Part shown: in pieces, positions 4,363 to 33,490 of the stretch
Position numbering within the stretch: the first letter of the stretch is position 1
Layout of the letters: every line of letters starts with the position of its first letter
DNA from: Cantharellus purpuraceus
Lineage: Eukaryota > Basidiomycota > Agaricomycetes > Cantharellales > Hydnaceae
DNA length: 64,000 bases
Direction of reading: 5' to 3'
NCBI GenBank assembly: GCA_025174535.1
Contig: JALBUN010000041.1
Span: 1-64,000 of the forward strand
Notes under the pieces: model-generated
Seen by the model: only the letters and a program-made list of their open reading frames with translations
Databases searched by the model: none
What the model was told of the DNA's origin: nothing
Made by a program: the position numbers and the translations under genes

Positions 4363-6056
4363 GTAACAATCCCTTTGCAAGCATAAACTCAAGCAGTTGC
4401 TCCTGGCCTGATGGAAAGAGGAGGAGGGGGAATGGAAGCAGAAGGAGGAAGAGGAGTGGAAATGGAAGGAGGAGGAAGAGGGGCAGAAACAGAAGGAGGA
4501 GGAGGAGGAATGGAGATGGAAGGAGGAAGAGGAAGAGGAATGGAGACAGAAGGAGGAAGGAGGAAGAGGGAGAGGAATGGAGACAGAAGGAGGAAGGAGG
4601 AAGAGGAAGAGGAAGAGGAACAGAGACAGAAGGAGGAAGAAGAGGGATGGAGATGGAAGGAGGAAGAGGCAGAGGTGGAGCAAGCCCACAAGGTCAAGGA
4701 GCTGGAGGCCACAATGGAGGCTGTGAAGTTGAAGGAAGTGGAGGAGCAGGCACACAAACTAGAGACCACCATGGAGGTAGAGGAGGAGGTGACTGGGGTG
4801 GAGGTGACTAGTCACCCAGGGAGTCCAAGTGTGCCAATGCAGACACAGACCCCTGAGGTCACCATTATTTCAATTACATGGACAGAGCCATCCTGTCTGA
4901 CACCTGCTCCACCGGCATGCTCACCAGTGCATTCATGGCCACAGCTGTTGTTCATGGTGGGTGCAGCTGAAGAGGATGACACAGCAGAGGTGGAGAAGGA
5001 AGAGATGGAGGTGGATCTGAATGCAGATCAGGATGTGGATGTGGAGCCAGAGGTGGAGGTGGAGCCTGAAGCAGACACAGAGCCTGACCCACCCTCAAAT
5101 TGCTATCAGGAAATGGCCTGGGTGGAGGTGATTGAAGACTGTGTGGAGCTGTATGCTGCTACAACAAAGAAGAACCTTGAGGTCACAGTCTTCTCATTGG
5201 AGGCATATCTGAGTGAGGCTACAGCAAAGCATGAGGAGGAGTGGAGAGTGATATGGCATAAGGCAGAAGACCAGTTAATAGCAACTTGTAAAAAGGAGTC
5301 ACATGTTGCCAGGTCAGCAATCAAGCTTCATCAGTGTGAGATGGAGAGGGCCATGGTGGAGCAACAGGACAAGGAGGAGGAGAGGGAGGATTTGGAGGCC
5401 ACATTGAAAAGGAGTGGGCCACTCAAGGCTCCAGCTCTGGCAGAGCCATTTGGCAGACCTGGTGTCATATGTGACTTGTGTTGCAATGTGGGTGTTCAGT
5501 GTATATGGCCCACTGGCCTAACCCAGTGACTTCAATCCTGCAACCGGTGTTGGGGTCAGAAGGAGGGTGTAGGATTGATGGAAAATTCAATCCCCAGAGC
5601 TGAAGCATGAAGCCCTGGCCAGTGGCACAAGGAGAGGCAGAGAAGGAGTCAGGGGAATGCCCAAAGAAAAGATGGTGGACAGAGAGGGGTGCCATTGCAG
5701 CTGGGGGAAGTGGTGTCAGATCAGAAGGGGTGATGACCAGTGCAGGTACAGGGTGTGTTACAGTGCCCAACAGCACTGTCGGTCAGCTTATAAAGCTGGT
5801 CAGTCTGCAGTTGGAGTACCTTCAGCAGACTGAGGGGTTGCTGGTAGACTTAGTGAAGTCCATGAAGTGGAGAGAGGTCCTTGAAGGGTGGCAGACTGCA
5901 GAGCTGTGCTGATTGCATAAGCATTTCGCCCCTATGGACATTGATTCAGATATGGGGGATGAGAAGGACTGGGTGTTGGATGTGGAGGATGATAGTGAGT
6001 TGGAGATGGAAGCTGGGGTGGGTAAGGGGAAAGGGAAAAGGAAGCAGAATGTATGA
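4363..6056 (+). pseudogene. Antisense accessory gene of gypsy G1, copy A: coiled-coil protein with paired Cys motifs (broken)
   Basis: The frame has a Glu/Lys/Arg-rich coiled-coil start (long runs of KEEEE and RQKEEE), an acidic middle, and a conserved body with KEEEREDLEA. A Cys motif CDLCCNVGVQC (C-x2-C-x6-C) is followed about 20 residues on by a second one that is damaged here (CNRC). A tail with GQLIKLVSLQLEYLQQTEGLL and a basic GKGKGKRK end complete it. Compared with copy B (31817-33490 minus) this copy has TGA at 5527-5529 and 5910-5912 where copy B has arginine, a 1-nt loss near 5560, and frame slips in the purine-rich start. It lies antisense to the adjoining gypsy pol (6167-7085), tail to tail, exactly as in copy B. 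The paired Cys motifs recall fungal Zn2Cys6-type metal binding, but the spacing is not classical. Function is unknown. Confidence 0.65.
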
Positions 6057-6166
6057 CTTGTAAAAATAAAATGGATTTGAACATAATTTTTGAGCAGCTA
6101 AAGAAGTAATGAGAGTGACTTGTAATTTTGAAGATGAAGTTTGGATTGGGATGGTGTTTTTGGAGC

Positions 6167-7085
6167 TCAGGTTGACTTGTGTTTTGTTCTGTAAATGTAA
6201 TATAATGAATGATGCAAAATAATAGGATTGGAGTTGATTATATCTTCAAGATTCATAAGAGGACCTGGTTTATTTGGATAAACAGAATGGAAATCAGAAA
6301 TGGATTTGGATGTGTGATTGAGTTTGGATGCAGAGATCCATGAAGATTCTTCATCCATGCCTTCATATCCAGTCCACTTGACTAGGTACTGGAGTTTACA
6401 CTTGTATCAATGATTGATCTTTGAGTTGAGAATCTTGGATATCTCATATTCATTGTCTCCTTCAATGATGATTGGAGGAGGTGGAGATTGGGTGCAACCA
6501 GGAATCTCATTCGTGGTAGTAGGTTCAAGCATTGATATGTGGAACACCCAGATGAACTGCTCAGAAGTGGTCAGGAAGCTGGAGGGTGAAGGACCAACAT
6601 GGGCAATGACCTCATAAGGACCTAAAAATTTCTTGGAGAGTTTCTTGGATGGATGGGTGGTTCAGAAATGTTCAGCCTTGACAAATTCTGATCTGCAGGT
6701 CCAGAGCTGGGGTGTGGTGTCAGTCTGCAGGGACTTGGTATCATTTCTGGGCATTGGAGATGGCTTGGAGATGTTGGTGTAGTTGGTCAAGGTTAGTCAA
6801 ATTGGCGGGCTTTGGTAGAGGTGAGTTCCTTCTCAGGGTGAATGGAGATGTTCAGGTGGTAGCCTTTGTTAGCAAAAAAGGGTGAGATGCCAGTAGTCAC
6901 ATTTGGAGCATTGTTGTAGGCAAACTCTGTGATTGGAAGTAGATCAGCCCAGTTGTCTTGTTGATAGTTACAATAGACTTGGAGATATTGTTCCAGGGAC
7001 TGATTCATATGTTCCATTTGCCCATCTCCTTTGGGATGATAACCTGAGGTGAGGTGGCACTCCAAGAACATGATTTTGATCAAAG
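6167..7085 (-). pseudogene. Gypsy G1 pol C-terminus: integrase end plus chromodomain (broken)
   Basis: On the minus strand the frame starts within the integrase core (LTSGYHPKGDGQ, then EQYLQVYCNYQQDNWADLLP and EFAYNNAPN). It continues through the C-terminal integrase domain (KKLSKKFLGPYEVIA, FHISMLEP) to a chromodomain-like end (EYEISKIL, YLVKWTGYEG, SSWISASKL, SDFHSVYPNKPGPL). It is broken by stops, among them a TGA at 407-409 past 6000 (6407-6409) where copy B is open. The integrase inserts the cDNA, and the chromodomain may steer insertion to heterochromatin. The left part of pol is cut off at about 7085 by a copia fragment. Copy B is at 29460-31659. Confidence 0.85.
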
Positions 7086-7092
7086 CCAACCA

Positions 7093-8395: not shown

Positions 8396-8396
8396 C

Positions 8397-8408
8397 TAAT
8401 ATATAAGA
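8397..8408 (+). promoter_or_regulatory. TATA box of the small two-exon gene
   Basis: AATATATAAGAG lies about 65-75 bp upstream of the ATG at 8471 and favours that ATG over the in-frame one at 8369, which would lie upstream of the TATA box. Confidence 0.45.
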
Positions 8409-17726: not shown

Positions 17727-19180
17727 TGTTTTGGAACCCGCAAAATTATGGTGTTAGGGCAAACTCTAAATCACCACAATTCCGTGAATGAACAGCTGAG
17801 AAGAATATCAAATCCTACTGCAGCACAACTCCAGAAACGATTTAACATTTGTACTTTGGTTACAATCCGTTGTAATGGTCAATGCAGACGATACGCAGGA
17901 AGGTAATACGTTTCTTAGCAGTAGGGAATGAATAAGACTTCCAGAGTCTAGAGTTCACGGATGCTTAGGGGTCCAGATATTCCAAAAAGAGGGGAATGCA
18001 CTTAGAGGCTAGAGGAAGTAGGTGGATGAATCCGACCGTCCAACCAGTGACACTCTGAAGCGGGTAACAGCGATGTGTGAAGTAGTCTAGCAACTGCTTC
18101 ACACGAGTTCAAGATTCTAATGCTCTGCAAAGGCAGTACACACTAGTAACTTAAACAAGAGCACTAATGGCAGGACTATCGACAGACAATCTCACCCTGT
18201 AGATTCGTAGTCACACGAGGTAGATACTACACTCACGCCCAAAGCAGGACAATCACTACTTCGAGTGCAATCAAATACAGTTACACAACTGTAAGCGACC
18301 CTTGAACTGGACAATCAACAGTTACTGAGATATAGAGGATGACACTGTATGTCACTCTAGTCACACTGATGTGCAAATGATGGGGTAGAAAAATGGTTAT
18401 TTATTCAGAGGCAGAATGGGCTCCTTTTATATTGTATTTACAGGAGCTGACTAATACTACTGGAAACTTCTACCTATTAATAGATGGAAACTACTGGAAG
18501 CTAGTGGAATATGTGAGAAAGGGGTGGAAGTTTCCTAGCCAATGAGCTGCTTGGATTTGCTCTGACTCATGGCATGAGTCATGGATGGAGTCATAGTGTG
18601 ACTCAGAGCAGGAGTCATAGTATGAGTAATCACAGGAGTCATGGTATGAGTCATGGAAGGAGTCATAGCATGAGTCATGGCAGGAGTCATTGCATGAGTC
18701 ACCATTACTCAAATAACTCGGTCAATACTTCGTTTCCCAGGCTGATTAGCACAGCTATGGGTAGGCATGGCTTCTATTGAACTCTCCACTGAAAATGGAG
18801 TCAGGAGGTGCAGTGGTTGCGAAGATATTGAGCATTTACTGGCAGTGGTGACCAGATTGAGTCGGAGATTGAAATGAGTCATGTGATCGACAATGAGTCA
18901 GTTGTCCGGGTGACTCCGGCTGACTTTGAGGCTGCTGACATCTGCGAAGGTTTGTGGGTCCATGTGGGTCCCAAAACTTCGCCCAGCAGAACAATAAGTT
19001 TGTAGACTCATTTCTGCATGGAAAATTCCCAAAAAATATGAAAAAATAGAGAATATTTGAATGGCCCTGAATCAAGAGAAAGCAGCAGATATATGCTGAT
19101 ATTTTAAGGCCATGAAGCGAAATTGTACAGTTTTGGGACTTTAAACAAGATCTTTTTAAGGGAAAACCAGTTCCCATACA
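17727..19180 (-). repeat. G2 LTR 1 (3' LTR), 1454 bp
   Basis: Plus-strand ends are TGTTTTGGAACCCGC and CAGTTCCCATACA. Read on the minus strand the TATA box is AATATAAAAGG (18423-18433). Upstream of it lies a 12-bp-period repeat rich in TGASTCA heptamers (18563-18701, with two more at 18875-18900). Compared with LTR 2 it lacks one 24-bp piece of that repeat. At several sites it matches the solo LTR 3 rather than LTR 2. Confidence 0.9.
18563..18701 (-). promoter_or_regulatory. TGASTCA (Gcn4/AP-1-type) array in the G2 LTR 1 promoter
   Basis: Six exact TGAGTCA/TGACTCA heptamers occur in 139 bp, spaced on a 12/24-bp grid with near-miss GGAGTCA units between them. They lie about 130-270 bp upstream of the LTR TATA box. 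Two more exact sites lie at 18875-18900. TGA(C/G)TCA is the known binding site of Gcn4/CPC1- and AP-1-type bZIP factors. Actual binding here is inference. Confidence 0.6.
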
Positions 19181-19184
19181 TTCA

Positions 19185-19194
19185 TCCCCCCTTC
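19185..19194 (-). promoter_or_regulatory. Polypurine tract of G2
   Basis: On the minus strand GAAGGGGGGATGAA lies right before the 3' LTR, the expected place for plus-strand priming. Confidence 0.65.
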
Positions 19195-19211
19195 AAATAT
19201 TCTCCGAGACT

Positions 19212-20228
19212 TTAGTCACTCCTCTCCTCTACTATTCCAGCCTCATCGGCGCCACCTGAGTTACTCGCCGCATATGGGTCTACAACATGCGGGTTGAGGG
19301 GCAGAGGAAGGAAGGAAGGGTAGGCCTTTTTGACACGCGGGTCACAGGTGGAGGAAGAGTTAGATACATGTATGGAAGGAGTAGGCGTGTTAGGAGGAGT
19401 GAAGACATGAACAGTCTCCGGGTGATAGGAATCAACATATCCGCAAGCGAGTGCTCGGTGCATATCAAGAAGCTGTCTCACCGACGGTTTCCACAACACC
19501 AACTGTTTCTTATTGGCTTCCTCGCCGTCTCGGTCTGGTTCAACAGGAGAAGAGCTGCGCGGTCTTTTGGTAGACTCGCAGTCGGAGTGAATTTGAAAAG
19601 AGTGAGCGATGGGGAGGAGAGTGCTGGAAAGCTCGGATGACCTGGAGTCATCCTCTGTATGGAAAGAAGGAGAGCCGGAATCCGAATTGTAGTCGTCACC
19701 TAGAGGTGAAGGAGGCCACCTCCAAGTGCAATCGGGCACCAAAGAGGAATTGTATTTGGCCTTGCTGATCCAAGCGGACAAGCGACGGGACTGGTTCTGC
19801 CAGTCTTCGATCCAGCCGCGGATTATGCCAGTCCTTTCAGGGAGAAGTAGAAGGTTGTAGGAGAGCTGATGCACGGAAGGGAAAGGGGGTGGAATCATGT
19901 TTATCTCGCGCAACTTCTCCGATGGAACGTAGAGGGGAAGGGGTTCGAGAGCCGTTTCGCTGTTCCAGCGATGGGCTGCTGATAGAATGTATCGCCCTTT
20001 CATCCGGAGTGATTCCCAGAAACAACTGGCTAGCTCACTGCGTAGAATGCCATAATCGTCAGCAGGGTCATTGAAATAGATAAAGTCGAACCGGTTTGGT
20101 TTATAATAGTCGAAATCGGACGTGTATTGATACCCGTAGTTGGGGATGGAGACCGGCTCCTGAATGAAAGAATCTCCTTCCTTACGCAAGGAAAACTGGA
20201 GGGAGGAGATTTGTGGATAGACGGCCAT
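19212..20228 (-). CDS. G2 third ORF, unknown protein, 338 residues
   Basis: An intact ORF lies downstream of pol in the same orientation, between pol and the 3' LTR, where retroviruses carry env. It starts MAVYPQISSLQFSLRKEG. The N-terminal half is rich in aromatic residues (YGYQYTSDFDYYKPNRFDF) and looks folded. The middle is Ser/Asp-rich with a basic stretch (STKRPRSSSPVEPDRDGEE) that could be a nuclear signal. After a helix-like KPSVRQLLDMHRALACGY segment comes a Pro/Ser-rich tail. No signal peptide, transmembrane segment or Cys pattern of an envelope is seen, so env is unlikely. I do not recognise the family. Being uninterrupted in an element whose other parts are nearly intact suggests a retained role or young age. 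Confidence 0.6.
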   Translation of the reverse strand: MAVYPQISSLQFSLRKEGDSFIQEPVSIPNYGYQYTSDFDYYKPNRFDFIYFNDPADDYGILRSELASCFWESLRMKGRYILSAAHRWNSETALEPLPLYVPSEKLREINMIPPPFPSVHQLSYNLLLLPERTGIIRGWIEDWQNQSRRLSAWISKAKYNSSLVPDCTWRWPPSPLGDDYNSDSGSPSFHTEDDSRSSELSSTLLPIAHSFQIHSDCESTKRPRSSSPVEPDRDGEEANKKQLVLWKPSVRQLLDMHRALACGYVDSYHPETVHVFTPPNTPTPSIHVSNSSSTCDPRVKKAYPSFLPLPLNPHVVDPYAASNSGGADEAGIVEERSD

Positions 20229-20404
20229 AGCGAAATGATATATAGAACAATCAATAGTTTTCTAAGAGCTCTTTCAAGGTGGGAGTGAGATGTCAAGATA
20301 GAGAGTCGCATTGGTTTTTAAAATAAGGGGGCATACATGCATAGAACAAGCTGGAAAATGGTGGAAGAATGAGCCGATAGAGTAGAGTGAGAGGGGAAGA
20401 CTTC

Positions 20405-23400
20405 TTAGTGAGACTTGCTTCGGTCACGCCGGTCCCAAGTATGCAACAGATCGGGGGCATTGCGAAGGTAGCGACGAGGGAGCCATTCATCATAGCTCGC
20501 ATCGTAGCCAAGGAAACGCGTGAGTAGCTCTTGAACTCGACGTCCGTTCCGGGCCTTGCACCAGCGCTCACCGATGATAGATTCGACCTCAAATTCCGGC
20601 AATTCGCTGAAGCTAGCGCGATCGAGGGACCTAGTGGGCCGCTTTCCGAAACGAGGGTGGGAGGAGGAATAGGGCTCGAGATGGGCAATATTGAGGACTG
20701 GGTGGATGCCATAGGATGCGGGCAGACGCAGCCGGTACGTAGCTGGTCCTAGTTTCTGCAGAATTTCAAAGGGTCCATCATACTTCATGTTTAGTTTCTT
20801 ACCTCGGCCTGGTTCAGAGCGTAGAAGGTCAAGAGAGTGGGGGTTAAGGAGGACGAGGTCGCCAGCTTCGAACTCCATGGCCAGGTGTCCGGCGTTGTAG
20901 CTACGTTGCTGAGCAACCTGCGCAAACTGCAGGGATTGCCTGGCTCGCGATCGGTAAGCCTTAAACTCCTCTAGAAAGTCAGCGGCTTTCGTGCTTTCGA
21001 CCTCAGGAGCAAGTGGGGCCGTTCTAGCGCGATCGGGAAGTTTGGCGGCAAACTCGGCTGGATTTGATGATCGCGGTCGTGCTACACCGTCAGGGGCAGG
21101 GTGTAGGTAAGAAGATGGTGTGCGTGGATGATAACCGTAGAGTAGAAGCGCGGGGGCTAGACCAGTAGCCAGGTGGGGAGTGTTGTTGTAAGAGAACGCG
21201 AAAGGAGTGGTGAGAGCCGCCCAGTCATCACGCGCGGGGCTTACGTAAGAGCGCAGTGCGGTTTCCAGCGTCTGATTCAAAATCTCTGTCTGCCCATCAG
21301 CTTGAGGATGATAAGCAGTAGTTAAGGCTCTTTTCATGTTTAGCTGTTTGCATAACTCTTTCCAAAAAGTGCTAGTCCATCTAGAATCCCTATTGGATAT
21401 GATTTGCTTAGGGATTCCATATTTGGACAGTACATGTTCAAAAAATAACCGAGCTGTACCCTCCTCATTAATGGTACTTTGAGTAGGGATAAAGATTCCA
21501 TATTTTGTGAGTTTATCCACTATTACCAGGATGGAATCATACCCATTGCTCTCGGGCAATTCCGTGATGAAATCCATGGTTACGACTTCAAATGGATTTT
21601 CTGGAATAGGAATGGGCTGTAATAATCCAATGGGTGCGTGTCGCCTAGGTTTGGCTTTCTGGCAAATGTCACAGCTCACGACAAACTTTTTGACATCTCT
21701 ACTCATTCTAGGCCAATAGAAAGTAGAAGCCAGCTTGTTGTACGTCTTGTGATAACCCGCATGAGCTCCTTCAGTGATTTCATCATGAATTTCACTTAGA
21801 AGTTTAGCTTGCTCATCCTTGGGTACACACAGCCGGTAATTTCCATTCCAATCTTCAAAGTAAAGCAATCCGTCCTCATTTTCAAAAAAGAGAGGATGCT
21901 TTGGGCTGATCCAATTAGACTCCTGTCGTAATTCAGATCTGACCCTTTTGAAGTAAGGATCTTTGGCATACGCATCAACTATTTTCTGAATCTCCTCCTG
22001 AGCAAGGCTAGAGACTAGATTATAGCTTTTGGCTGTTACATATGGAATGGTGAAGTCTTCTTCAAGGCTGGTATTAGCTTGGATGGAAGAAGAATACACT
22101 TTCTGCGGAATTCTCTGGTTCTCTTCTTCATACGCAACCATTAACATTAAAGTCCTGGCTTCGAATTGGGGAGAGATATCAGAATAAAAATCCACAAGTG
22201 GATCCTGTTCTGAATCCAGGATAGTAGGAATGGTGTCATCAGAAGAAGGCCCATCTTGGTATGGAACATTTCTCCTGAGTCTAGAGATAGGATCTACATT
22301 GGAGTGAACCCGTCCTGCTCTGTGTACGATCTTTAATTCAGGGTATGCAGCAAATACTGTTCCCCAAGTTAATAACCGCCTATTAACATTTTGGTAGGTC
22401 CGACTCCAGATAAGGGCTGCATGGTCTGTAATTGCTACTACTTTCTCCCCTTCAATGTAGGGTTGAAATTTGATAAGACCATCTCGTAACGCAAGCGCCT
22501 CTCTTTCCGTAGGAGAGTAATTTCTTTCAGCTGGTTTCAAGGTACGAGACCAGTAAGCAATGACTCGTTCTACTGAAACCGTAGTGTTTTCAAAGTCTTT
22601 ATCCCAAGTACCTGGCTTAGGGAGAGTTTCCTCCTTTGACACGGGAATCACCATTTGGGGTACAGGTAATCCTTTGTCATATGCTGATTTGAGTTTCTCA
22701 TACCCTTTGGTACCCTTGAGATCTCTGATTTTGAGAGGTTGGATCTGCTGAAGTATAGTGGCAATTCCAACATCACATGCATCAGAGTAGACTCTGTATC
22801 CAAGACCAGGAATGGCATATGCCCTAACTGGTGCACTGACTAGGGCATTCTTAGCCAAATCAAAGGCTTCCTGTTGAATAATGCCCCATTCCCAAGTTGA
22901 ATTCTTTTTGAGCAATTCAAACAAAGGGGCTACAATCCATGCATAGAATGGTATATATGAAGAAAAGTATACCACCATTCTGAGGAAGATTTGTAGGTCA
23001 TGCACATTCTTTGGCTCTGCCAATTCTAGTATAGCATCTATCTTCTCCTTGTGAGTTGATAGACCCAACCGTGATACCTTCTGTCCCAACAGTAGCAAAG
23101 ACTGGTAGGCCAAATGGCACTTGGCAGGAGATAAGGTGATTCCTGACTTTTCTATAGCTCTGAACACTTTGTCCAGATGTACTAAGTGTTCTTTGAACGT
23201 CTTGGAATATATGACAATATCATCTATATAGACCAGGGCAAATACCCATAGAAAAGGTGCTAGGACACCTTGCATTACTCTTTGAAAGACTGCAGGCCCA
23301 TTCCGATACCCAAAAGGCATCCGTTTGAACTGATACAGTCCTCTATGAGTTCTGAATGCAGTTTTTTCTTTGGCACTGTCCGACATTTGCAGCTGCGTGA

Positions 23401-25258
23401 AACCCGCTAACGCATCCAAAGTGGATAACCAACGAGATCCAGTGAGTGCCTGCAAAATGGAATCTTGTCTTGGCAAGGGAAATTCATCCGGGACAGCAAT
23501 CTCATTGAGTTTCCTATAGTCTATACACATTCTTGGTTTCCCATTACGATAGGCTATAAGTGCTGGAAAACCCCAAGGACTTTTGGATGGTTCAATGACT
23601 CCAAGACTGAGCCAAGCATCCATTTGCTTGTCAATGACTTCCCTTTTGGCAGGTGAGGCATTATAAGGAGGTAGTGAAATTTCTTTGGCCTCAGGCCTGA
23701 GATTGATTTCAACTTTTGCATCATAATTGCCAAGTCTGCCATCAAGACCAAATGCGTCTTTATGTGCCAGAACTGTATCTTGAAGAGCCTTCCTATTGGC
23801 ATCATTGAGCTCTGGTGAGAAGTCAATTTCATCCAACAGTTGGTTTTCAGGAACATCCTCAGGGGGAATTTCCTGAGCCTTAGGTCCTCCTTGTACCACC
23901 TCTCCATCTGATTCAAGAGAGGCAACAGTAGGTACCGCACCAGTCTCAAAGTTCTGTTGAGCAAGAGCTTTTATGAGTCTGGCGTGAGAGAGACAAGTCT
24001 CTAATTGAGTCTGGTTCAAATTAGAAGTCCGATCCAGCCAATTGGAAGGATTTCTAGCATGACCCAGAAGTTGTCCTTGATGTATAGTAACTGGTTGTGA
24101 TGAAAAATTGCTAACATGTAGGCACGGGTTATTCAGAGATACAATTGCATCTGAGATGCCATAGAAATCTTCAGGCCCATGATTGGAGTGAAGCACTTTT
24201 TCCACATAAACTTCATTACTATTCCCAGGGAAATAGATAGAAGCAGGAATTAGAGAAGCAGTTTCAGGAGGAATTGTGACGGGATGTAAGGCCCTAACAC
24301 TTGAATCCGAAATGCGTGCTCTAATCCGTTTCCGAGATTTCTTAATACGTCTATGAGCCTTGAACTTTGCAGTTAGAGATGCAAGGTCAGGAAGGGCTCT
24401 TATTTTAAAGGTGTGACCATTCTCATCCAATAAGGGTGAGCTCACTGAGTTCTCAATCTTGGCTTTCCGTCCAGTATTACCAAACATAAGATAGCTATCT
24501 GAGCCTTCTCTTATAAGTGAGATAGAGTACTGATCAGCAAAATCATTCCCAAGAATGACAGGGGTAGTCATGCCTTTGACCACATAAGCTTCAACTTCAA
24601 TCTGAACTGGTCCAGAGTCAGAGTCAAAGTAAATGGGCACCGTAACGTATCCAGAAATTTTGGATGTGCCAGTAACTTGTATCAAGTTAATTTTCTGACC
24701 TGTTTTGATCTTAGGAGGATTCTCCATAGAGCAAAGAGCTTTCTGAGAGATAAGGGTTATGTCTGAACCAGAATCAGCTACAAGGGTAGTTTGATTCTTT
24801 CCATATTCTCCCAGCCAAACATTAGTAGTGGTTGCAGAAGATCCAAGGAAGGCACAGCCTGCTGGTCTGGACATGAAACGCTTGAGTTTAATCAAGGAGT
24901 TAGGAGCCCAACTAGTAAGCTTAGAATTCCTTAGGAAAGCAGCTACATGTTTGGAATCTTTCATTAACCTTCTCCTCTCTTGACGAGATTTAGGAGTGAA
25001 CGTCTCAGAAAAAGATTTTTCCAGAGACAAAGGCTCAGAAGATTCTTCTCTATTAGGTATGGATCCCCCCAGTCGGGACATACTTTCCAGCAAGCTCATG
25101 GCTGGTTTGGCAAGTTGACAATGTGCTTCTGTATCCTGAGCAGAGTCCTGTTGATCCAAAGAAGGTTCTTCAGGAATATTCTCAGTTGCAACATTATTAA
25201 CATGAGCATTGTCTGAATTTGAATCTACTTCTGATTCATGAAGTGATTCAAGGTACAT
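20405..25258 (-). CDS. G2 Pol polyprotein (protease, RT, RNase H, integrase, chromodomain-like end), 1617+ residues
   Basis: Domains in order: retropepsin-like protease with TTLVADSGSDITLIS (about residue 155; DSG in place of DTG); reverse transcriptase with RMCIDYRKLNEI, the catalytic FALVYIDDIVIYSK; RNase H with YRVYSDACDVG and ALALRDGLIKF; an integrase zinc finger (HAGYHKTY...CDICQKAK); the integrase core with TMDFITELPES, ISNRDSRWTS and DGQTEILNQTLE. A C-terminal chromodomain-like part ends it (EFEVESIIG, FLGYDASYDEWLP). The second integrase catalytic position is Asn where the family has Asp (S-D-R-D); its 35-residue spacing to the Glu is correct. The frame continues upstream of the listed Met through 15 open codons to the gag TAA, so translation may start by readthrough rather than at 25258. 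Confidence 0.92.
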   Translation of the reverse strand: MYLESLHESEVDSNSDNAHVNNVATENIPEEPSLDQQDSAQDTEAHCQLAKPAMSLLESMSRLGGSIPNREESSEPLSLEKSFSETFTPKSRQERRRLMKDSKHVAAFLRNSKLTSWAPNSLIKLKRFMSRPAGCAFLGSSATTTNVWLGEYGKNQTTLVADSGSDITLISQKALCSMENPPKIKTGQKINLIQVTGTSKISGYVTVPIYFDSDSGPVQIEVEAYVVKGMTTPVILGNDFADQYSISLIREGSDSYLMFGNTGRKAKIENSVSSPLLDENGHTFKIRALPDLASLTAKFKAHRRIKKSRKRIRARISDSSVRALHPVTIPPETASLIPASIYFPGNSNEVYVEKVLHSNHGPEDFYGISDAIVSLNNPCLHVSNFSSQPVTIHQGQLLGHARNPSNWLDRTSNLNQTQLETCLSHARLIKALAQQNFETGAVPTVASLESDGEVVQGGPKAQEIPPEDVPENQLLDEIDFSPELNDANRKALQDTVLAHKDAFGLDGRLGNYDAKVEINLRPEAKEISLPPYNASPAKREVIDKQMDAWLSLGVIEPSKSPWGFPALIAYRNGKPRMCIDYRKLNEIAVPDEFPLPRQDSILQALTGSRWLSTLDALAGFTQLQMSDSAKEKTAFRTHRGLYQFKRMPFGYRNGPAVFQRVMQGVLAPFLWVFALVYIDDIVIYSKTFKEHLVHLDKVFRAIEKSGITLSPAKCHLAYQSLLLLGQKVSRLGLSTHKEKIDAILELAEPKNVHDLQIFLRMVVYFSSYIPFYAWIVAPLFELLKKNSTWEWGIIQQEAFDLAKNALVSAPVRAYAIPGLGYRVYSDACDVGIATILQQIQPLKIRDLKGTKGYEKLKSAYDKGLPVPQMVIPVSKEETLPKPGTWDKDFENTTVSVERVIAYWSRTLKPAERNYSPTEREALALRDGLIKFQPYIEGEKVVAITDHAALIWSRTYQNVNRRLLTWGTVFAAYPELKIVHRAGRVHSNVDPISRLRRNVPYQDGPSSDDTIPTILDSEQDPLVDFYSDISPQFEARTLMLMVAYEEENQRIPQKVYSSSIQANTSLEEDFTIPYVTAKSYNLVSSLAQEEIQKIVDAYAKDPYFKRVRSELRQESNWISPKHPLFFENEDGLLYFEDWNGNYRLCVPKDEQAKLLSEIHDEITEGAHAGYHKTYNKLASTFYWPRMSRDVKKFVVSCDICQKAKPRRHAPIGLLQPIPIPENPFEVVTMDFITELPESNGYDSILVIVDKLTKYGIFIPTQSTINEEGTARLFFEHVLSKYGIPKQIISNRDSRWTSTFWKELCKQLNMKRALTTAYHPQADGQTEILNQTLETALRSYVSPARDDWAALTTPFAFSYNNTPHLATGLAPALLLYGYHPRTPSSYLHPAPDGVARPRSSNPAEFAAKLPDRARTAPLAPEVESTKAADFLEEFKAYRSRARQSLQFAQVAQQRSYNAGHLAMEFEAGDLVLLNPHSLDLLRSEPGRGKKLNMKYDGPFEILQKLGPATYRLRLPASYGIHPVLNIAHLEPYSSSHPRFGKRPTRSLDRASFSELPEFEVESIIGERWCKARNGRRVQELLTRFLGYDASYDEWLPRRYLRNAPDLLHTWDRRDRSKSH

Positions 25259-25303
25259 ATCCTCATAGGCAAGGTCTGCATTAGCTTCTTCATTAGAAAC
25301 CGT

Positions 25304-27847
25304 TTAACGTGTATGGGCAGAGCGAGATGCTGAACTGGCATGTTTGCACTCATTATCCCAATGCTTGTTACTGCCACAATGCCTGCAGGGTCTAGCTCCT
25401 TTGGATTCAGGTGTGGAATTTTTAGACACATTAGAATCATCCCGAGGGAATTTTGGAGGATTCAATTTGGATGACCATCCAACCAGATGAGCTCTAGCAT
25501 CTCTAAAAGATCTGTTCGAGTCAAACCTAGGTTTGGGTTGATGCAAAGAATTTTCCAAATTTCTAATACGTCTTTCCAGGTTGTCTCCTGAAGAGAAAGG
25601 AGCATGCGACAATGATTCCTCGTGATACTTGATAGCAGTTTGGAATTCCACTGCAGATGAACACCTGTGAGCATCAATGACTGTATGCCAGTAAGGTGGT
25701 GCACCATTCATGATTTCCAATATAAGCTCTGAGTCTGACAGCTTGCTGACCAGTCTCAATAGCTCTGACTTTCTAACGTAATACTCACTAGGAGTCTCAT
25801 TAGTAAAGCCAGGCTCTCTGAAAGTAGCACGAGTTGCTCTAGCTTTCTGCCTATCCAACCAGGCTCTGTTCATATAGTATGAACCAATGACTTCTCTGAT
25901 GGACTTCCAGTCCTCAGTTGCTTCTTGGCAGTAGGATAATGGTAAAGAGAAAAACCACCGCTCTGCTCCTTTACGCAACCGCAAAGGGATTATTTGTCCC
26001 AATTGCTTGAAGACCGTAGGAGATCGCTGAGCCAAATGATTTACTTTCAATATCCATTGAGCCAGATTGTCAGGGTTTCCATCCCATTCAGGGACTAAGT
26101 CCTGACGCAACTTGTTATCAAAGTAAGCTTCTAGCTTGCTCTGAGTTACTGGAGCGTCTAATCTGAGATTAGGGTTTCTCTGATCAAGATCCCCCCAGTC
26201 TGGACTATGACTGTAACCTCCACCATCACCTCCATCAGGAGGACCTGAGCCTCCATGCCTTCCAGGAGGAGGAGGATTACTCCTCACACTTCTATGTGGC
26301 AATGATGGTCTAGGTAAAAATGGATTAGGTGTATGAGGGGGACCAAGAGATCCGTCATCATCAGGAGGTTCACCTCCTCCAGAAGCTCCATAAGGTCTGT
26401 GAGGAACCGTAATGGATTCTGGAATGCCCAAAGTACCCCTGCTCCGAACTTGAGGAGGAGTATAGAACATTTCTTCCAAACCTGCAGATCCAGTAAGTTT
26501 ACTAGGATCCTGATGGTAAGGAGAATTGAAAAGAGTAGAGGGTCTGGGACCACGATTGTAAACCACAGACTGTCTCTGTCTAATCCGTTCATGATCAACT
26601 GGAAAGTTTTCTCCTTGATCCGTTCTGGAAATCAAAGGAGCTTCCTTAGCAGTATAGGCAACAGTGGACTGCTGAATGTTTCTGACAGGCATAGATGCAT
26701 GAGGAGGAACTTCATGTCCAAGGACAGGGTTCACTGGTGCATTAATGACCTTGGCTTCATAGAAACTAGTATCTGCAGCAACCTTTCTCTGCAAAGCAGC
26801 TTGGGCAGCAGCAAAACGAATTTTGAAGCCGTTAATGTCAGAAGACATTTCCGCAATATCTGGGAGTGCAGGAGACAAAAAGTCATCCTTGACTGGTTTC
26901 CATATACCATTAGACTTGGATACCGCATCCCAATAAAATGCCAAAAAGTTTTCTACATCTTCACGTAGCGTAACACAAAGCACTTCCATGTCCTTAGAAC
27001 TCCAAAGGGAGTCACTAGGCCATTCTGAAGGCAATGAAGGGACAGTAGGAGTAGGAAGTTTCATCTGCTGCAATACGCTTTCTCTTTCACTTGCAAGGTG
27101 ATTGAGTGCATCTAACAGTTGCTTATACTTCCATGGATCAAGATAATACCCCGTACTACCATGTTGACTAACCCGTCCAGGATGTCCGAGTAGTACTACA
27201 TTGAGTAAGGCTAACTCTTTCTTGAAGAGTCCAATAGCAAGGCGATTCAGAGCTCTAGTACCTGGTGCTTCCGCACGATTAAAGCTCATCTCTGCAATGC
27301 TAAGGAGTGCATCTCTTCTGGAAGAGAGTAGGGGATCAAGTCTGACCTCTCTCCGTACTCTTGCTGCACTGAAGCTTTTCAAAGGCTTACCAGGCACTAC
27401 AAAGACATTTTGTAATGGTCCTGTGATAAGGGGTCCATCAAAAGTCCAATTGGTAAGTGCATGGTCAGTCTGATCAACTTCCACAGCAAAAGAGGCATCT
27501 GCAGCACTAATCTCTTCATCCGTAGTAAATGTCTGGTCAAGATCATTCACAGGAGTGAGTGGGGATCTAGTGTGCAAGAAACCAGGAGTAATAGGGGCAA
27601 TTGGTCGCTCTGGTTGAGCAGCCAAAGGAGTAGACGGGTCGTCCTCAAGTTGTTGTTGTTGTCGAATTGTTGAGGTAGACATGTTGCTCAGCTTGAATGA
27701 GGTCAACTTGTCACGAGGTCGATACGATTCGAAACGAGTTTGAATACGAGTTGGTGTTGGATAAGGGTTTAGATAAAGAGGAGAGTTAGGATTAGAGGAG
27801 GAGGGCAGACGAGTGTGACTATAGAACTTGTCCTCTGGAAATTCCAA
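25304..27847 (-). CDS. G2 Gag, 847 residues, ending in one TAA in frame with pol
   Basis: A long Gag has a Pro/Ser/Thr-rich N-terminal part, helical middle and a Gly/Pro-rich linker (PHRSVRSNPPPPGRHGGSG). The retrotransposon Gag core follows (YFDNKLRQDLVPEWDGNPDN, AQWILKVNHLA, RKGAERWFFSL). A single zinc knuckle CRHCGSNKHWDNEC (C-x2-C-x4-H-x4-C) lies near the C-terminus. It assembles particles and binds the RNA. The ATG at 27847 lies about 130 bp inside the LTR. The stop at 25304-25306 is TAA, and the next 15 codons plus pol are in the same frame, so the two are separated only by this stop. Confidence 0.9.
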   Translation of the reverse strand: MEFPEDKFYSHTRLPSSSNPNSPLYLNPYPTPTRIQTRFESYRPRDKLTSFKLSNMSTSTIRQQQQLEDDPSTPLAAQPERPIAPITPGFLHTRSPLTPVNDLDQTFTTDEEISAADASFAVEVDQTDHALTNWTFDGPLITGPLQNVFVVPGKPLKSFSAARVRREVRLDPLLSSRRDALLSIAEMSFNRAEAPGTRALNRLAIGLFKKELALLNVVLLGHPGRVSQHGSTGYYLDPWKYKQLLDALNHLASERESVLQQMKLPTPTVPSLPSEWPSDSLWSSKDMEVLCVTLREDVENFLAFYWDAVSKSNGIWKPVKDDFLSPALPDIAEMSSDINGFKIRFAAAQAALQRKVAADTSFYEAKVINAPVNPVLGHEVPPHASMPVRNIQQSTVAYTAKEAPLISRTDQGENFPVDHERIRQRQSVVYNRGPRPSTLFNSPYHQDPSKLTGSAGLEEMFYTPPQVRSRGTLGIPESITVPHRPYGASGGGEPPDDDGSLGPPHTPNPFLPRPSLPHRSVRSNPPPPGRHGGSGPPDGGDGGGYSHSPDWGDLDQRNPNLRLDAPVTQSKLEAYFDNKLRQDLVPEWDGNPDNLAQWILKVNHLAQRSPTVFKQLGQIIPLRLRKGAERWFFSLPLSYCQEATEDWKSIREVIGSYYMNRAWLDRQKARATRATFREPGFTNETPSEYYVRKSELLRLVSKLSDSELILEIMNGAPPYWHTVIDAHRCSSAVEFQTAIKYHEESLSHAPFSSGDNLERRIRNLENSLHQPKPRFDSNRSFRDARAHLVGWSSKLNPPKFPRDDSNVSKNSTPESKGARPCRHCGSNKHWDNECKHASSASRSAHTR

Positions 27848-27966
27848 ATCGGTTTGTTCCAGATTACGAGAAACTATATTGAGTAAAGACTTATTGATAG
27901 AGGATTGGGTTATATCTGCAATGGTGCTTAGAATCTACACTCTAGACACTGCTTAAGCAATTCCCA

Positions 27967-27979
27967 GAGTGTCCACCAA
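27967..27979 (-). promoter_or_regulatory. Candidate primer binding site of G2
   Basis: Read on the minus strand, TTGGTGGACACTC begins directly after the 5' LTR end. TGG at the start pairs with the CCA end of a tRNA. The tRNA cannot be named from memory. Confidence 0.55.
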
Positions 27980-29459
27980 TGTTTTGGAACCCGCAAAATT
28001 ATGGTGTTAGGGCAAACTCTAAATCACCACAATTCCGTGAATGAACAGCTGAGAAGAATATCAAATCCTACTGCAGCACAACTCCAGAAACAATTTAACG
28101 TTTGTACTTTGGTTACAATCCGTTGTAATGGTCAATGCAGACGATACGCAGGAAGGTAATACGTTTCTTAGCAGTAGGGAATGAATAAGACTTCCAGAGT
28201 CTAGAGTTCACGGATGCTTAGGGGTCCAGATATTCCAAAAAGAGGGGAATGCACTTAGAGGCTAGAGGAAGTAGGTGGATGAATCCGACCATCCAACCAG
28301 TGACACTCTGAAGCGGGTAACAGCGATGTGTGAAGTAGTCTAGCAACTGCTTCACACAAGTTCAAGATCCTAATGCTCTGCAAAGGCAGTACACACTAGT
28401 AACTTAAACAAGAGCACTAATGGCAGGACTATCGACAGACAATCTCACCCTGTAGATTCGTAGTCACACGAGGTAGATACTACACTCACGCCCAAAGCAG
28501 GACAATCACTACTTCGAGTGCAATCAAATACAGTTACACAACTGTAAGCGACCCTTGAACTGGACAATCAACAGTTACTGAGATATAGAGGATGACACTG
28601 TATGTCACTCTAGTCACACTGATGTGCAAATGATGGGGTAGAAAATGGTTATTTATTTCAGAGGCAGAATGGGCTCCTTTTATATTGTATTTACAGGAGC
28701 TGACTAATACTACTGGAAACTTCTACCTATTAATAGATGGAAACTACTGGAAGCTAGTGGAATATGTGAGAAGGGGGTGGAAGTTTCCTAGCCAATGAGC
28801 TGCTTGGATTTGCTCTGACTCATGGCATGAGTCATGGATGGAGTCATAGTGTGACTCAGAGCAGGAGTCATAGTATGAGTAATCACAGGAGTCATGGTAT
28901 GAGTCATGGAAGGAGTCATAGCATGAGTCATGGAAGGAGTCATAGCATGAGTCATGGCAGGAGTCATTGCATGAGTCACCATTACTCAAATAACTCGGTC
29001 AATACTTCGTTTCCCAGGCTGATTAGCACAGCTATGGGTAGGCATGGCTTCTATTGAACTCTCCACTGAAAATGGAGTCAGGAGGTGCAGTGGTTGTGAA
29101 GATATTGAGCATTTACTGGCAGTGGTGACCAGATTGAGTCGGAGATTGAAATGAGTCATGTGATTGAAAATGAGTCAGTTGTCCGGGTGACTCCGGCTGA
29201 CTTTGAGGCTGCTGACACCTGCGAAGGTTTGTGGGTCCATGTGGGTCCCAAAACTTCGCCCAGCAGAACAATAAGTTTGTAGACTCATTTCTGCATGGAA
29301 AATTCCCAAAAAAAATATGAAAAAATAGAGAATATTTGAATGGCCCTGAATCAAGAGAAAGCAGCAGATATATGCTGATATTTTAAGGCCATCAAGCGGA
29401 ATTGTACAGTTTTGGGACTTTAAACAAGATCTTTTTAAGGGAAAACCAGTTCCCATACA
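27980..29459 (-). repeat. G2 LTR 2 (5' LTR), 1480 bp
   Basis: Same ends as LTR 1. It carries the TATA box at about 28676-28686 and the TGASTCA array at 28816-28978, with one more 24-bp unit pair than LTRs 1 and 3. It is followed on the right directly by gypsy G1 pol sequence (29460). Confidence 0.9.
28816..28978 (-). promoter_or_regulatory. TGASTCA array in G2 LTR 2 promoter
   Basis: The same 12-bp-period array as in LTR 1, expanded by 24 bp, with seven exact TGASTCA heptamers upstream of the LTR TATA box. Two further sites lie outside the array at about 29150-29177. Confidence 0.6.
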
Positions 29460-31659
29460 ACTATCAACAAGACAACTGGGCTGATCTACTTCCGATCACA
29501 GAGTTTGCCTACAACAATGCTCTGAACGCAACTACCGGCGTCTCTCCGTTCTTTGCTAATAAAGGCTACCATCTGAACATCTCCATTCACCCCAAGAAAG
29601 AACTTGCCTCCACCAAAGCCCACCAATTCGTAACCGACCTCAATCAACTACACCAACATCTCTGAGAAACCATCTCCAATGCCCAGAAACAATACCAAGT
29701 CTCTGCGGACCAATGCCGCATTCCGGCTCCGGACCTGCAACTCAGAGACAAAGTATTTGTTAAGGCTGAACACTTCCAGACCACCCGTCCATCGAAGAAA
29801 CTCTCCAAGAAATACTTAGGTCCTTATGAGGTCATTGCTTGCACAGGCAGCAGGTCCTTCACCCTCCACCTCCCTGACCACTTCCAAGCAGTTCATCTGG
29901 TCTTCCATATATCAATGCTCAAACCTGCTACTACAAACGAGATCTCCGGTCACACACAACCTGTATGGGAACTGGTTTTCCCTTAAAAAAGATCTTGTTT
30001 AAAGTCCCAAAACTGTACAATTTCGCTTCATGGCCTTAAAATATCAGCATATATCTGCTGCTTTCTCTTGATTCAGGGCCATTCAAATATTCTCTATTTT
30101 TTCATATTTTTTTGGGAATTTTCCATGCAGAAATGAGTCTACAAACTTATTGTTCTGCTGGGCGAAGTTTTGGGACCCACATGGACCCACAAACCTTCGC
30201 AGATGTCAGCAGCCTCAAAGTCAGCCGGAGTCACCCGGACAACTGACTCATTGTCGATCACATGACTCATTTCAATCTCCGACTCAATCTGGTCATCACT
30301 GCCAGTAAATGCTCAATATCTTCGCAACCACTGCTCCTCCTGACTCCATTTTCAGTGGAGAGTTCAATAGAAGCCATTCCTACCCATAGCTGTGCTAATC
30401 AGCCTGGGAAACGAAGTATTGACCGAGTTATTTGAGTAATGGTGACTCATGCAATGACTCCTGCCATGACTCATGCTATGACTCCTTCCATGACTCATAC
30501 CATGACTCCTGTGATTACTCATACTATGACTCCTGCTCTGAGTCACACTATGACTCCATCCATGACTCATGCCATGAGTCAGAGCAAATCCAAGCAGCTC
30601 ATTGGCTAGGAAACTTCCACCCCCTTCTCACATATTCCACTAGCTTCCAGTAGTTTCCATCTATTAATAGGTAGAAGTTTCCAGTAGTATTAGTCAGCTC
30701 CTGTAAATACAATATAAAAGGAGCCCACTCTGCCTCTGAATAAATAACCATTTCTACCCATCATCTGCACATCAGTGTGACTAGAGTGACATACAGTGTC
30801 ATCCTCTATATCTCAGTAACTGTTGATTGTCCAGTTCAAGGGTCGCTTACAGTTGTGTAACTGTATTTGATTGCACTCGAAGTAGTGATTGTCCTGCTTT
30901 GGGCGTGAGTGTAGTATCTACCTCGTGTGACTACGAATCTACAGGGTGAGATTGTCTGTCGATAGTCCTGCCATTAGTGCTCTTTGTTTAAGTTACTAGT
31001 GTGTACTGCCTTTGCAGAGCATTAGGATCTTGAACTTGTGTGAAGCAGTTGCTAGACTACTTCACACATCACTGTTACCCGCTTCAGAGTGCCACTGGTT
31101 GGACGGTCGGATTCATCCACCTACTTCCTCTAGCCTCTAAGTGCATTCCTCTTTTTGGAATATCTGGACCCCTAAGCATCCGTGAACTCTAGACTCTGGA
31201 AGTCTTATTCATTCCCTACTGCTAAGAAACGTATTACCTTCCTGCGTATCGTCTGCATTGACCATTACAACGGATTGTAACCAAAGTACAAACGTTAAAT
31301 TGTTTCTGGAGTTGTGCTGCAGTAGGATTTGATATTCTTCTCAGCTGTTCATTCACGGAATTGTGGTGGTTTAGAGTTTGCCCTAACACCATAATTTTGC
31401 GGGTTCCAAAACACAACCTCCACCTCCCCTGATCATCATTGAAGGAGATAATGAATATGAGATATCTGAGATCCTGGACTCAGGGATCGATCGTTGTTAC
31501 AAGTGCAAGCTCCAGTACCTAGTCAAATGGACTGGATATGAAGGCACTGACAAAGAGTCCTCATGGATCTCTGCGTCCAAACTTGATCACACATCTGAAT
31601 CTGTCTCTGACTTTCACTCCACTTATCCAGACAAACCTGGCCCTCTTATGAATCTTTAA
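29460..31659 (+). pseudogene. Gypsy G1 pol 3' part, copy B: integrase end plus chromodomain, split by a solo LTR
   Basis: The frame 29460-29961 encodes NYQQDNWADLLPITEFAYNN, FFANKGYHLNISIHP, one TGA at 29663-29665, then KLSKKYLGPYEVIA and HLVFHISMLKPAT. It resumes after the LTR at 31414 with a proline run and the chromodomain (YEISEILDSGIDRCYKC, YLVKWTGYEGT, SSWISASKLDH, SDFHSTYPDKPGPL) to TAA 31657-31659. With the LTR and one copy of the 5-bp duplication removed, the frame joins without loss. The 5' part of pol is missing at the G2 junction. It is the paralog of 6167-7085. Confidence 0.85.
29962..31413 (+). mobile_element. Solo G2 LTR (LTR 3) inside gypsy G1 pol
   Basis: A 1452-bp LTR in the orientation opposite to G2, starting TGTATGGGAACTGG and ending TTCCAAAACA. 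A 5-bp target duplication CAACC flanks it (29957-29961 and 31414-31418). It has the TATA box at about 30711 and the TGASTCA array at 30443-30581. It marks a past full insertion that recombined down to one LTR. Confidence 0.92.
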
Positions 31660-31816
31660 GTTCCATTACTAATGCTAATTCTATTATTTTGCATCATCAT
31701 TTTATTACAAGTCACAAAGGAATTACAAGTCTGCCCAAAACTCCAAAGGAATCTCACTCTGCCTCATTTTTCTCTGCTCTGAAATATTAAAATCATTTTC
31801 ATTTTCATTTTTTAAG

Positions 31817-33490
31817 TTATACATTGCGTTTCCTTTTTCCCTTCCCCTTGTCAACCTCAGGCTCTGTCTCCGACACCATCTCCAACTCATCATCACTCTC
31901 TGCATCCGACACCCAATCTTTCTCATCCCCCATATCTGAATCTTCATCCAAGGGGGCCATGAACTTCCGCAGCCGACACAACTCAGCAGTCCGCCGACCC
32001 TCCAGAACCTCCTTCCATTTCATTGTCTTCACCAAGTCCACTAACAACCCCTCTGTCTGCCGGAGGTGCTCCGACTGCAGGTTAACCAGCCGGATAAGCT
32101 GGCCCATGGTACTATTGGGTGCAGAGACGTGCCCTGTACCTGCACCGGTCATTGCCCCTTCTGACCCAACACCGCTACCCCCAGCTGCCACAGCACCTGT
32201 CTCTGTCCACCGCTTTTTGGTCGGATGACCTTCCAATTCTTTCTCCGCCCCTCCTTGTACCACTAGCCAGGGCTGGATGCTCTGACTCTGGGGATCGAAC
32301 TTTCCATCGATCCTACACCCTCCTTTCTGACCCTGACAACGATCGCAGGACCGAAGGCGGTGAGTTGGGCCGGTAGGCCACACACACTCCATGCCCACAT
32401 CCCAACACAAGTCACAAATTACACCAGGCCCACTGAATGGCTCCATTGGAGCCAGAGCCTTGGGTGGTCCACTCCTTCTTGATGCAGCCTCCAAGTGCTC
32501 CCTCTCCTCCTCCTTGTCCTGCTGTTCAGCTGCCACCTTCTCCATCTCGCGCTTGCAAAGCTGGATCGCTGACCTAGCGACACGCAGCTCCTTCTTATGG
32601 GTCACCAACATGCAACTCTCTGCCTTGCACCATATGACCCTCCAGTCCGCCTCCTGCTTCTCTGTATCAGCACTTGGGTGCGCCTTCAATGAAAAACCAT
32701 GACCTCGAGGTTCTTCTTGGTGGTAGTAGCATAAAGCTCTGCTCTTTTGCGAGCCTTGACCACAGCTACCCAAGCCATCTCCTCGTAACCATTCGAGGTT
32801 GGATCCGGCTCCACATCTGTCCCAACATCCACGCCTGCCTCAGGCTCTGCATTTGCGTCAAGCTCCATATTAGCATTGGGATCTGCCTCCACCTCTGCCC
32901 TCTCCACCTCCGCTGTGTCATCTTCCTCGCTGCACCCACTGCAAATAACAGCCATGACCACGGACGTAATGGCAAGTCCACCATAGGGACAGTTGTCAGA
33001 CGGGTCATCTCCATCCACATAATTGAGATGATGGCGACCTCAGGGGTCCCTGCCCATATTGGCACACTCAGACTCCCAGGTGACTGGTCGCCCCTGCCCC
33101 GGTCACCTCCTCCTCTACCTCCATGGTGACTTCTAGCTCATGCACCTGCTCTTCCACTTCCTTCAGTCTCGTGGCCTCCATCACAGCTGCAAGTTCCTTG
33201 ACCCTGCAGGCTCTCTCGGCTTTTGCTTCCTCCTCCTTCCTTCTCCGTTCCATCTCCGCTGCCTCCTTCCATCTCCGCTCCTCCTCCCCCTTCCATCTCC
33301 ACTCCTCCTCCTCCTTCCGTCTTTGCTCCTCCTCCTCCTTCTGTCTCTGTTCCGCCTCCTCCTCCTCCTTCTGTCTCCATTCTGCCTCCTCCTCCTCTTT
33401 CCACCTCCGCTCCTCTTCCTCTTCCTTCCGTTGAGCCAGGAGCAATTGCTCCAGCTCAGCCACGCTCATGTTTTCCAAAGGGTTTGACAT
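31817..33490 (-). pseudogene. Antisense accessory gene of gypsy G1, copy B: coiled-coil protein with two C-x2-C-x6-C motifs (frameshifted)
   Basis: Starts at 33490 with MSNPLENMSVAELEQLLLAQ, then a long Glu/Arg/Lys coiled coil and an acidic middle, broken by frame changes near 33070-32930 and 32690-32720. The last 290 codons are open and hold CDLCWDVGMEC and CDRCQGQKGGC (two C-x2-C-x6-C motifs about 20 residues apart), then GQLIRLVNLQSEHLRQTEGL and the acidic/basic tail ending KGKGKRKRNV. The paired motifs suggest metal binding and perhaps DNA binding. It runs antisense between gypsy pol (ends 31659) and the LTR (starts 33632), so its promoter region adjoins the LTR. Copy A (4363-6056) is intact where this copy is shifted, and the reverse, so an ancestral full-length gene is likely. 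The family was not recognised. Confidence 0.65.

What the first reader, a model, noticed from the sequence alone, without database searches (positions are those of the whole stretch)
4363..33490. A gypsy family carries an antisense gene for a coiled-coil, paired-Cys-motif protein between pol and the LTR
In two separate copies (pol 6167-7085 with gene 4363-6056; pol 29460-31659 with gene 31817-33490) the same gene sits right after the chromodomain end of pol, on the opposite strand, tail to tail. In copy B it ends before an LTR, so the gene lies inside the element and starts 140 bp from the LTR. It encodes a long Glu/Lys/Arg coiled coil followed by two C-x2-C-x6-C motifs and a basic tail. Antisense accessory genes inside gypsy elements are rare, and a metal- or DNA-binding product could regulate the element or its host. 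The two copies are broken at different points, which suggests one intact ancestor.
Basis: partly seen in the sequence, partly recalled or inferred. Interest (0 to 1): 0.75.

Follow-up and report, generated by a model that had tools for sequence, protein, structure and literature searches.

The report
Antisense accessory gene in fungal retrotransposon
A high-copy mobile element in a fungal genome carries an extra gene, written backwards between its replication genes and its end repeat, and natural selection has kept that gene's protein (somewhat less tightly than the replication enzymes), which suggests the element uses it.

Summary
Both window copies are broken members of a family with about 400 gene tags in this 40-Mb fungal genome. 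The element is a chromodomain Ty3/gypsy retrotransposon of about 7.9 kb, with TGTTATGAC...GTAACA LTRs and 5-bp target duplications. Between pol and the 3' LTR it carries a gene of about 560 codons on the opposite strand, tail to tail with pol, usually with a TATAAAA box between LTR and start codon. Six of 30 sampled (best-scoring) loci keep the frame open. Outside CpG-prone sites, where copies decay fastest, substitutions shared between copies give dN/dS about 0.10-0.26 in the gene against 0.04-0.06 in pol. The other five frames are worse. Changes unique to one copy are less constrained, except in the cysteine module. Six cysteines have the spacing of a fungal Zn(2)-Cys(6) cluster (recalled), but Pfam does not recognise it and no homologue was found. 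[quoted passage not shown] This is a new variant of a known kind; a regulatory DNA-binding role is likely but unproven.

The parts
31817..33490 (-). Copy B antisense accessory gene (broken; frame pieces 33068-33580, 32686-33039, 31817-32839)
   Evidence: relatives open over the whole length in 6 of 30 loci
32315..32416 (-). Six-cysteine module C-x2-C-x6-C-x12-C-x2-C-x6-C of copy B
   Evidence: read from the translation; kept in nearly all copies (exceptions: L021 has a stop at the fourth cysteine, L039 lacks the first; three A1 rows are cut before the second half)
33523..33529 (-). TATAAAA box of the antisense gene, 102 bp from the LTR edge and 32 bp before the start codon
   Evidence: present at the same place in 21 of the 23 loci among L001-L030 that show the LTR edge motif
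33632..33652 (+). Start of copy B 3' LTR (TGTTATGAC...), interrupted by later insertions
29460..29961 (+). Copy B pol remnant, integrase part
31414..31659 (+). Copy B pol remnant, chromodomain end (PF00385 2.8e-07)
29962..31413 (+). Solo LTR of a second gypsy family inserted in copy B pol (TSD CAACC)
4361..6056 (+). Copy A antisense accessory gene remnant
   Evidence: two other places 98% identical over the 146-aa query
6167..7085 (-). Copy A pol remnant (integrase to chromodomain)
3..994 (-). Third partial copy: LTR and first internal stretch of the same element family

Best explanation
A chromodomain Ty3/gypsy retrotransposon of a fungus (probably an agaricomycete, judging by named integrase relatives) carries a third gene. 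The gene lies antisense between pol and the 3' LTR and is probably read from its own TATA promoter beside the LTR (box seen, transcription inferred). It encodes a protein of about 560 residues: a charged helical repeat, an acidic middle part, a Zn(2)-Cys(6)-like six-cysteine module, and a basic C-terminus. Shown: location, orientation, copy number, and purifying selection on the reading frame while the element was active. Inferred: the protein acts in the nucleus as a nucleic-acid-binding factor that helps the element's own cycle, most likely by setting LTR transcription or chromatin context.
For: Complete elements: L032 has LTRs 2009-2537/9373-9901 with TSD GGTGA, L033 has LTRs 1966-2511/9253-9792 with TSD AACTA; the gene is internal in both. 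Pol end tail to tail, 123-168 bp between last residues, in 29 of 30 loci, and 193-198 bp in 5 of 6 copy-A-type loci. Of 72 exact gene tags typed from the capped listing, 51 have a pol tag 0.5-5 kb away on the expected side and strand, against 2 on the other side. Genome counts: 399 gene tags, 429 pol tags, reversed controls 0. Selection outside CpG-prone columns, alleles in at least 2 copies: C-terminal half N 13 against 126 expected (omega 0.10, p 3.9e-24), residues 1-150 and 100-250 0.26 each, cysteine module 0.13, pol 0.06 and 0.04; singletons in the gene 0.17 (cysteine module, few changes) to 1.22, in pol 0.58-0.78. Transversions alone, which deamination cannot make: 0.05 for the C-terminal half, p 1.3e-5. 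The gene frame has the lowest omega of six frames in all three parts tested. Between subfamilies, four loci, omega is 0.24-0.30. TATAAAA at the same place in 21 of 23 loci with an LTR edge.
Against: No expression data. PF00172 is hit by only 1 of 13 members, E 2.1, and two unrelated families (Cas_Cas1 0.0058, Nrap_D5 0.0064, 2 members each) score better, presumably by chance. The single-sequence fold has mean pLDDT 46 and says nothing. CGG/CCG half-sites are not clearly enriched in the LTR (0.75 per CpG against 0.66-0.71 in pol and gene). The omega counts treat alleles as independent and are simple counts, not a codon model. Transversion tests for the repeat parts are borderline (p 0.014, 0.048). 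The loci examined were the best-scoring ones. Two of 23 loci with an LTR edge (L009, L010) lack the TATAAAA box.
Confidence: 0.6

Rival explanations
1. The antisense protein is a structural or particle helper (for example an RNA chaperone or a nuclear-import tether for the integration complex) rather than a transcription regulator.
For: Charged helical repeat and basic tail fit several roles; Grande GENE23 is nuclear with unknown role, and the review also raises import of the pre-integration complex (PMC7264820 section 7).
Against: The element already has a gag with a CCHC knuckle and PF03732; the cysteine spacing is that of DNA-binding zinc clusters (recalled), not of Gag knuckles.
Confidence: 0.22
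2. The functional product is antisense RNA (dampening of gag-pol), and the reading frame is incidental.
For: Micropia, TART and IAP give non-coding antisense transcripts (PMC7264820, passages).
Against: Codon-level selection, omega 0.10-0.26, best in this frame; in the layout seen the gene does not overlap gag-pol.
Confidence: 0.05
3. A host gene captured once, now decaying, whose open frames persist only because CpG deamination rarely makes stops.
For: Copies differ mainly at CpG-prone sites (203 of 212 such columns variable against 127 of 667 others in 26 copies); stops are mostly TGA (17 of 21 in the gene). So open frames alone prove little.
Against: Shared changes outside CpG, and transversions in the C-terminal half, are strongly constrained; the between-subfamily comparison also gives omega 0.24-0.30. 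No homologue was found in the protein database, and none of the 19 places with ordinary PF00172 matches in this genome (sequences not compared) lies at a gene match listed.
Confidence: 0.08
4. The coding strand is the opposite one (sense ORF of about 250-277 aa across the repeat).
For: An open mirror frame exists in several copies.
Against: Mirror-frame omega is higher than the gene frame in all three parts: 0.21 against 0.09, 0.41 against 0.27, 0.56 against 0.22.
Confidence: 0.03

Closest known systems
Boty (BcGypsy1) with antisense gene brtn, Botrytis cinerea and Sclerotinia (Zhao et al. 2011; paper not held, known here through PMC7264820, PMC8365987 and PMC4227169)
   Same: Fungal chromodomain gypsy element with an additional antisense gene, which PMC7264820 lists among the pol-to-3'LTR antisense ORFs.
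Maize Grande gene23 and rice RIRE2 antisense ORFs
   Same: [quoted passage not shown] Grande's has its own upstream promoter and a nuclear product (PMC7264820).
   Different: Plant elements; proteins not compared directly.
Retand elements with TRP28 antisense ORFs (PMC11963269: abstract, background, discussion)
   Same: [quoted passage not shown] about half carry tandem repeats there.
   Different: Non-chromovirus plant lineage; no transposase-28-type Pfam hit in this protein.
Fungal Zn(2)-Cys(6) transcription factors (PF00172)
   Same: Cysteine spacing with a proline in the linker (rule recalled); charged helical region and basic stretches.
   Different: Pfam model not met; the cluster lies in the C-terminal half; carried by a retrotransposon.
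HTLV-1 HBZ and relatives (as described in PMC11963269 and PMC7264820)
   Same: Antisense regulator gene at the 3' end of a retroelement.
   Different: bZIP protein of a retrovirus (recalled); no sequence relation tested.

Membership tests
Chromodomain Ty3/gypsy element | gag, protease, RT, RNase H, integrase and chromodomain, two LTRs, target duplication | tested here: met
   Pfam gag, RVP_2, RNase H, rve, Chromo over cut-off, and RVT_1 below cut-off on a partial frame, on pieces from L007, L032, L033 and window copy B; LTR pairs and TSDs in L032, L033. Domains were found in pieces of different copies, not all in one.
Antisense accessory ORF between pol and 3' LTR (aORF-3R) | lies between pol and 3' LTR on the opposite strand, in most copies | tested here: met
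   29 of 30 loci, 51 of 72 tags, complete elements
Antisense accessory ORF between pol and 3' LTR (aORF-3R) | protein conserved about as well as other element proteins | tested here: met
   omega 0.10-0.26 against pol 0.04-0.06: constrained, but less than pol
Antisense accessory ORF between pol and 3' LTR (aORF-3R) | own promoter and transcript | tested here: inconclusive
   TATAAAA at a fixed place in 21 of 23 loci with an LTR edge; no RNA data
Zn(2)-Cys(6) binuclear cluster | C-x2-C-x6-C-x5-12-C-x2-C-x6-8-C spacing (recalled) | tested here: met
Zn(2)-Cys(6) binuclear cluster | match to PF00172 above cut-off | tested here: not met
   1 of 13 members, E 2.1; 10 of the 13 rows span the whole module
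Zn(2)-Cys(6) binuclear cluster | zinc-cluster fold | tested here: inconclusive
   pLDDT 46 without alignment
Retand TRP28 protein | TRP28 / transposase-28 domain | tested here: not met
   no such Pfam hit
Boty BRTN | sequence homology to BRTN | not testable with these tools
   BRTN sequence not held

The most novel reading that the evidence does not exclude
A fungal retrotransposon family encodes its own zinc-cluster-type transcription factor, expressed antisense from a dedicated promoter beside the 3' LTR, which controls the element's LTRs (and perhaps nearby host genes): a non-viral counterpart of HBZ and Tax style self-regulation.
Probability: 0.3. Interest if true: 0.75.

Novelty: new variant of a known kind. 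Interest (0 to 1): 0.52.

Why it matters
Antisense accessory genes of LTR retrotransposons have been noted for years with unknown role. Here is a family in one fungus with hundreds of copies, some open frames, a promoter-like box and a measured selection signal beside a pol yardstick, so the question of what such genes do becomes testable in one organism. If the cysteine module binds DNA, it would be a self-encoded regulator in a retrotransposon and a possible source of new host transcription factors.

Tried and rejected
Host-gene neighbour: rejected, because two complete elements with target duplications enclose the gene. Non-coding antisense RNA: disfavoured by codon-level selection. Sense-strand mirror ORF: disfavoured by the frame test. 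Open frames as proof of selection: rejected, since CpG decay makes stops only rarely. CGG half-site enrichment in the LTR: not found. Zn_clus membership: not filed. Homologues elsewhere: 0 hits at E <= 0.001 among 7,992 and 7,996 scored candidates. A control search with the family's integrase found 4,481 proteins, two of the 120 listed named Trametes cinnabarina and Cyclocybe aegerita. The absence is only moderately informative: candidates were capped and the query is rich in charged low-complexity words. Viral contigs: 38 pattern matches, 0 relatives. Solved structures: 0 matches at E <= 1 for the 340-aa piece, two chance-level matches for the cysteine part (E 0.86 and 1.9). Gene-less sister families were not examined. 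The alignment was made from loci chosen for having both the LTR motif and the TATAAAA box, so it is not an independent test of the box; the 21-of-23 count rests.
Full report
What is there. The window is contig C41 of a 40.15-Mb genome in 50 contigs. Among the 120 listed relatives of the family's integrase, the two with organism names are Trametes cinnabarina and Cyclocybe aegerita, so the host is a fungus, probably an agaricomycete (inference). Copy B, 31817-33490 on the minus strand, is split into three frames; copy A, 4361-6056 on the plus strand, is more decayed. Each faces the chromodomain end of pol tail to tail. Copy B's pol is itself cut by a solo LTR (29962-31413, target duplication CAACC) and by a second gypsy element that ends at 29459. 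Its own 3' LTR starts at 33632 and is interrupted after about 20 bp.

The family. A search of the own genome with the 340-residue open part of copy B gave 120 matches (119 of 1,162 candidates scored, so a lower bound), most at 80-87% identity. A 22-base gene tag occurs 399 times and a pol tag 429 times with up to 2 mismatches; the reversed controls occur 0 times. The listings show only the first 100 places each. In 29 of the 30 loci returned (one is copy B itself, and L013 and L014 are identical in the part compared) the pol end lies 123-168 bp from the gene's end on the opposite strand. In the 30th, L016, pol keeps about its last 29 bp before an insertion. Of six loci found with copy A as query (one is copy A itself), five show the same layout at 193-198 bp; in L039 neither end was found.

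The complete element. Two of the three 10-kb stretches fetched contain a full LTR pair: L032 (23 of 529 sites different, 6 of 451 outside CpG-prone sites, target duplication GGTGA) and L033 (36 of 533, 13 of 464, AACTA). In L031 no LTR pair was found. The element is about 7.9 kb: LTR, gag, protease, RT, RNase H, integrase, chromodomain, antisense gene, LTR (Pfam matches on pieces of several copies). The gene is entirely internal.

The gene. In 6 of 30 loci the frame is open from the start region to the C-terminus (L006, L007, L008, L011, L017, L026); these loci are the best-scoring ones, so the fraction is probably biased upward. The protein begins MSNPLASMSVAELEQLLLA in many copies (MSNPLENMS in copy B), continues with a variable number of 10-residue K/E/R repeats, an acidic middle part, the six-cysteine module and a basic C-terminal end (KGKGKRKR). 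A TATAAAA box lies 102 bp from the LTR edge and 32 bp before the MSNP start codon in copy B. Of the 30 loci, 23 show the LTR edge motif, and 21 of these have TATAAAA at the same place; L009 and L010 do not. TATAAAA occurs 52 times on the gene strand of the 36 loci and 6 times on the other.

Selection. The copies decay mainly by loss of CpG: 203 of 212 CpG-prone columns vary, against 127 of 667 others, in 26 copies (L010, L014, L025 and L027 left out, L014 as a duplicate and the other three for frame differences). Open frames are therefore weak evidence, and all CpG-prone columns were excluded before counting. For alleles present in at least two copies, which mostly arose before insertion (inference), the C-terminal half shows 13 nonsynonymous against 126 expected (omega 0.10, p 3.9e-24), residues 1-150 and 100-250 give 0.26 each, and the cysteine module 0.13. 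The pol pieces of the same loci give 0.06 and 0.04 (29 loci for the gene, 24 and 27 for the pol pieces). For changes seen in one copy only, omega is 0.62-1.22 in the gene except in the cysteine module (0.17, few changes), and 0.58-0.78 in pol. Transversions alone give 0.05 for the C-terminal half (p 1.3e-5) and 0.28 and 0.38 for the other parts (p 0.014 and 0.048). Every other frame has a higher omega. Comparison with four copy-A-type loci gives 0.24-0.30; the pol comparisons there give 0 to 0.27, and 0.75 in one case, where a frame break probably misaligns L038 (inference). The gene was thus kept by selection while the element was moving, less tightly than pol.

What it may do. The cysteine pattern C-x2-C-x6-C-x12-C-x2-C-x6-C is that of Zn(2)-Cys(6) regulators (recalled), and the protein is rich in charged helix and basic stretches. 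A nuclear nucleic-acid-binding role is the most economical reading. But Pfam's Zn_clus model scores only one of 13 members and weakly (E 2.1; two unrelated families score better, Cas_Cas1 0.0058 and Nrap_D5 0.0064, presumably by chance), the single-sequence fold is uninformative, and CGG half-sites are not clearly enriched in the LTR. I therefore say it works like a regulator with moderate confidence and do not file it as a Zn(2)-Cys(6) member.

What is known. Antisense ORFs between pol and the 3' LTR are reviewed for plants in PMC7264820 (seen: abstract, introduction, the sections on sense and antisense ORFs, origin and function, and passages of the rest); Grande's gene23 is read from its own promoter and its product is nuclear. 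Retand elements carry TRP28 antisense ORFs (PMC11963269: abstract, background, discussion). The review also names a fungal case, Boty with brtn, in Botrytis and Sclerotinia; the original paper was not held, only mentions (PMC8365987 and PMC4227169, passages). [quoted passage not shown] without the figure I cannot tell which element or strand (PMC2864245, passages). A survey of fungal LTR elements and one of Laccaria have no occurrence of 'antisense' in the main text (PMC3248453 abstract and term search; PMC3411680 term search). Nine literature searches (listed of found: 20 of 107, 4 of 4, 3 of 3, 1 of 1, 20 of 141, 11 of 11, 12 of 12, 9 of 9, 10 of 81) showed, in the titles and abstract openings listed, no basidiomycete case and no cysteine-cluster antisense protein; most subscription papers are missing from that library.

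Noticed in passing
window 17727-29459 (-): A nearly intact second gypsy element nested in copy B: gag frame 876 aa and pol frame 1632 aa in the same frame separated by a single stop codon (possible readthrough), and a sense extra ORF of 349 aa (19212-20261) between pol and 3' LTR with no Pfam match at E <= 0.01.
   Followed up: partly
window 29962-31413: Solo LTR of that second family in copy B pol with TSD CAACC; gene-to-pol tag distances elsewhere cluster near 1,735 and 2,575-2,618 bp, hinting at recurrent insert classes in this region.
   Followed up: partly
window 33652-42960: A 3.67-kb tandem and inverted repeat array inserted in copy B's 3' LTR and carrying copies of LTR pieces.
   Followed up: no
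L001-L030: Very strong CpG-specific decay of repeated DNA, with TGA as the main new stop, as cytosine methylation and deamination would give.
   Followed up: partly
G000:C16:352192 and G000:C22:28140: Two places 98% identical to copy A over the 146-aa query; their listed frames look identical to each other, suggesting duplication of a larger segment.
   Followed up: no
G000 C1:3121613 and C1:3138238 (L013, L014): Gene copies identical over the 293 codons shown, in opposite orientation about 17 kb apart.
   Followed up: no
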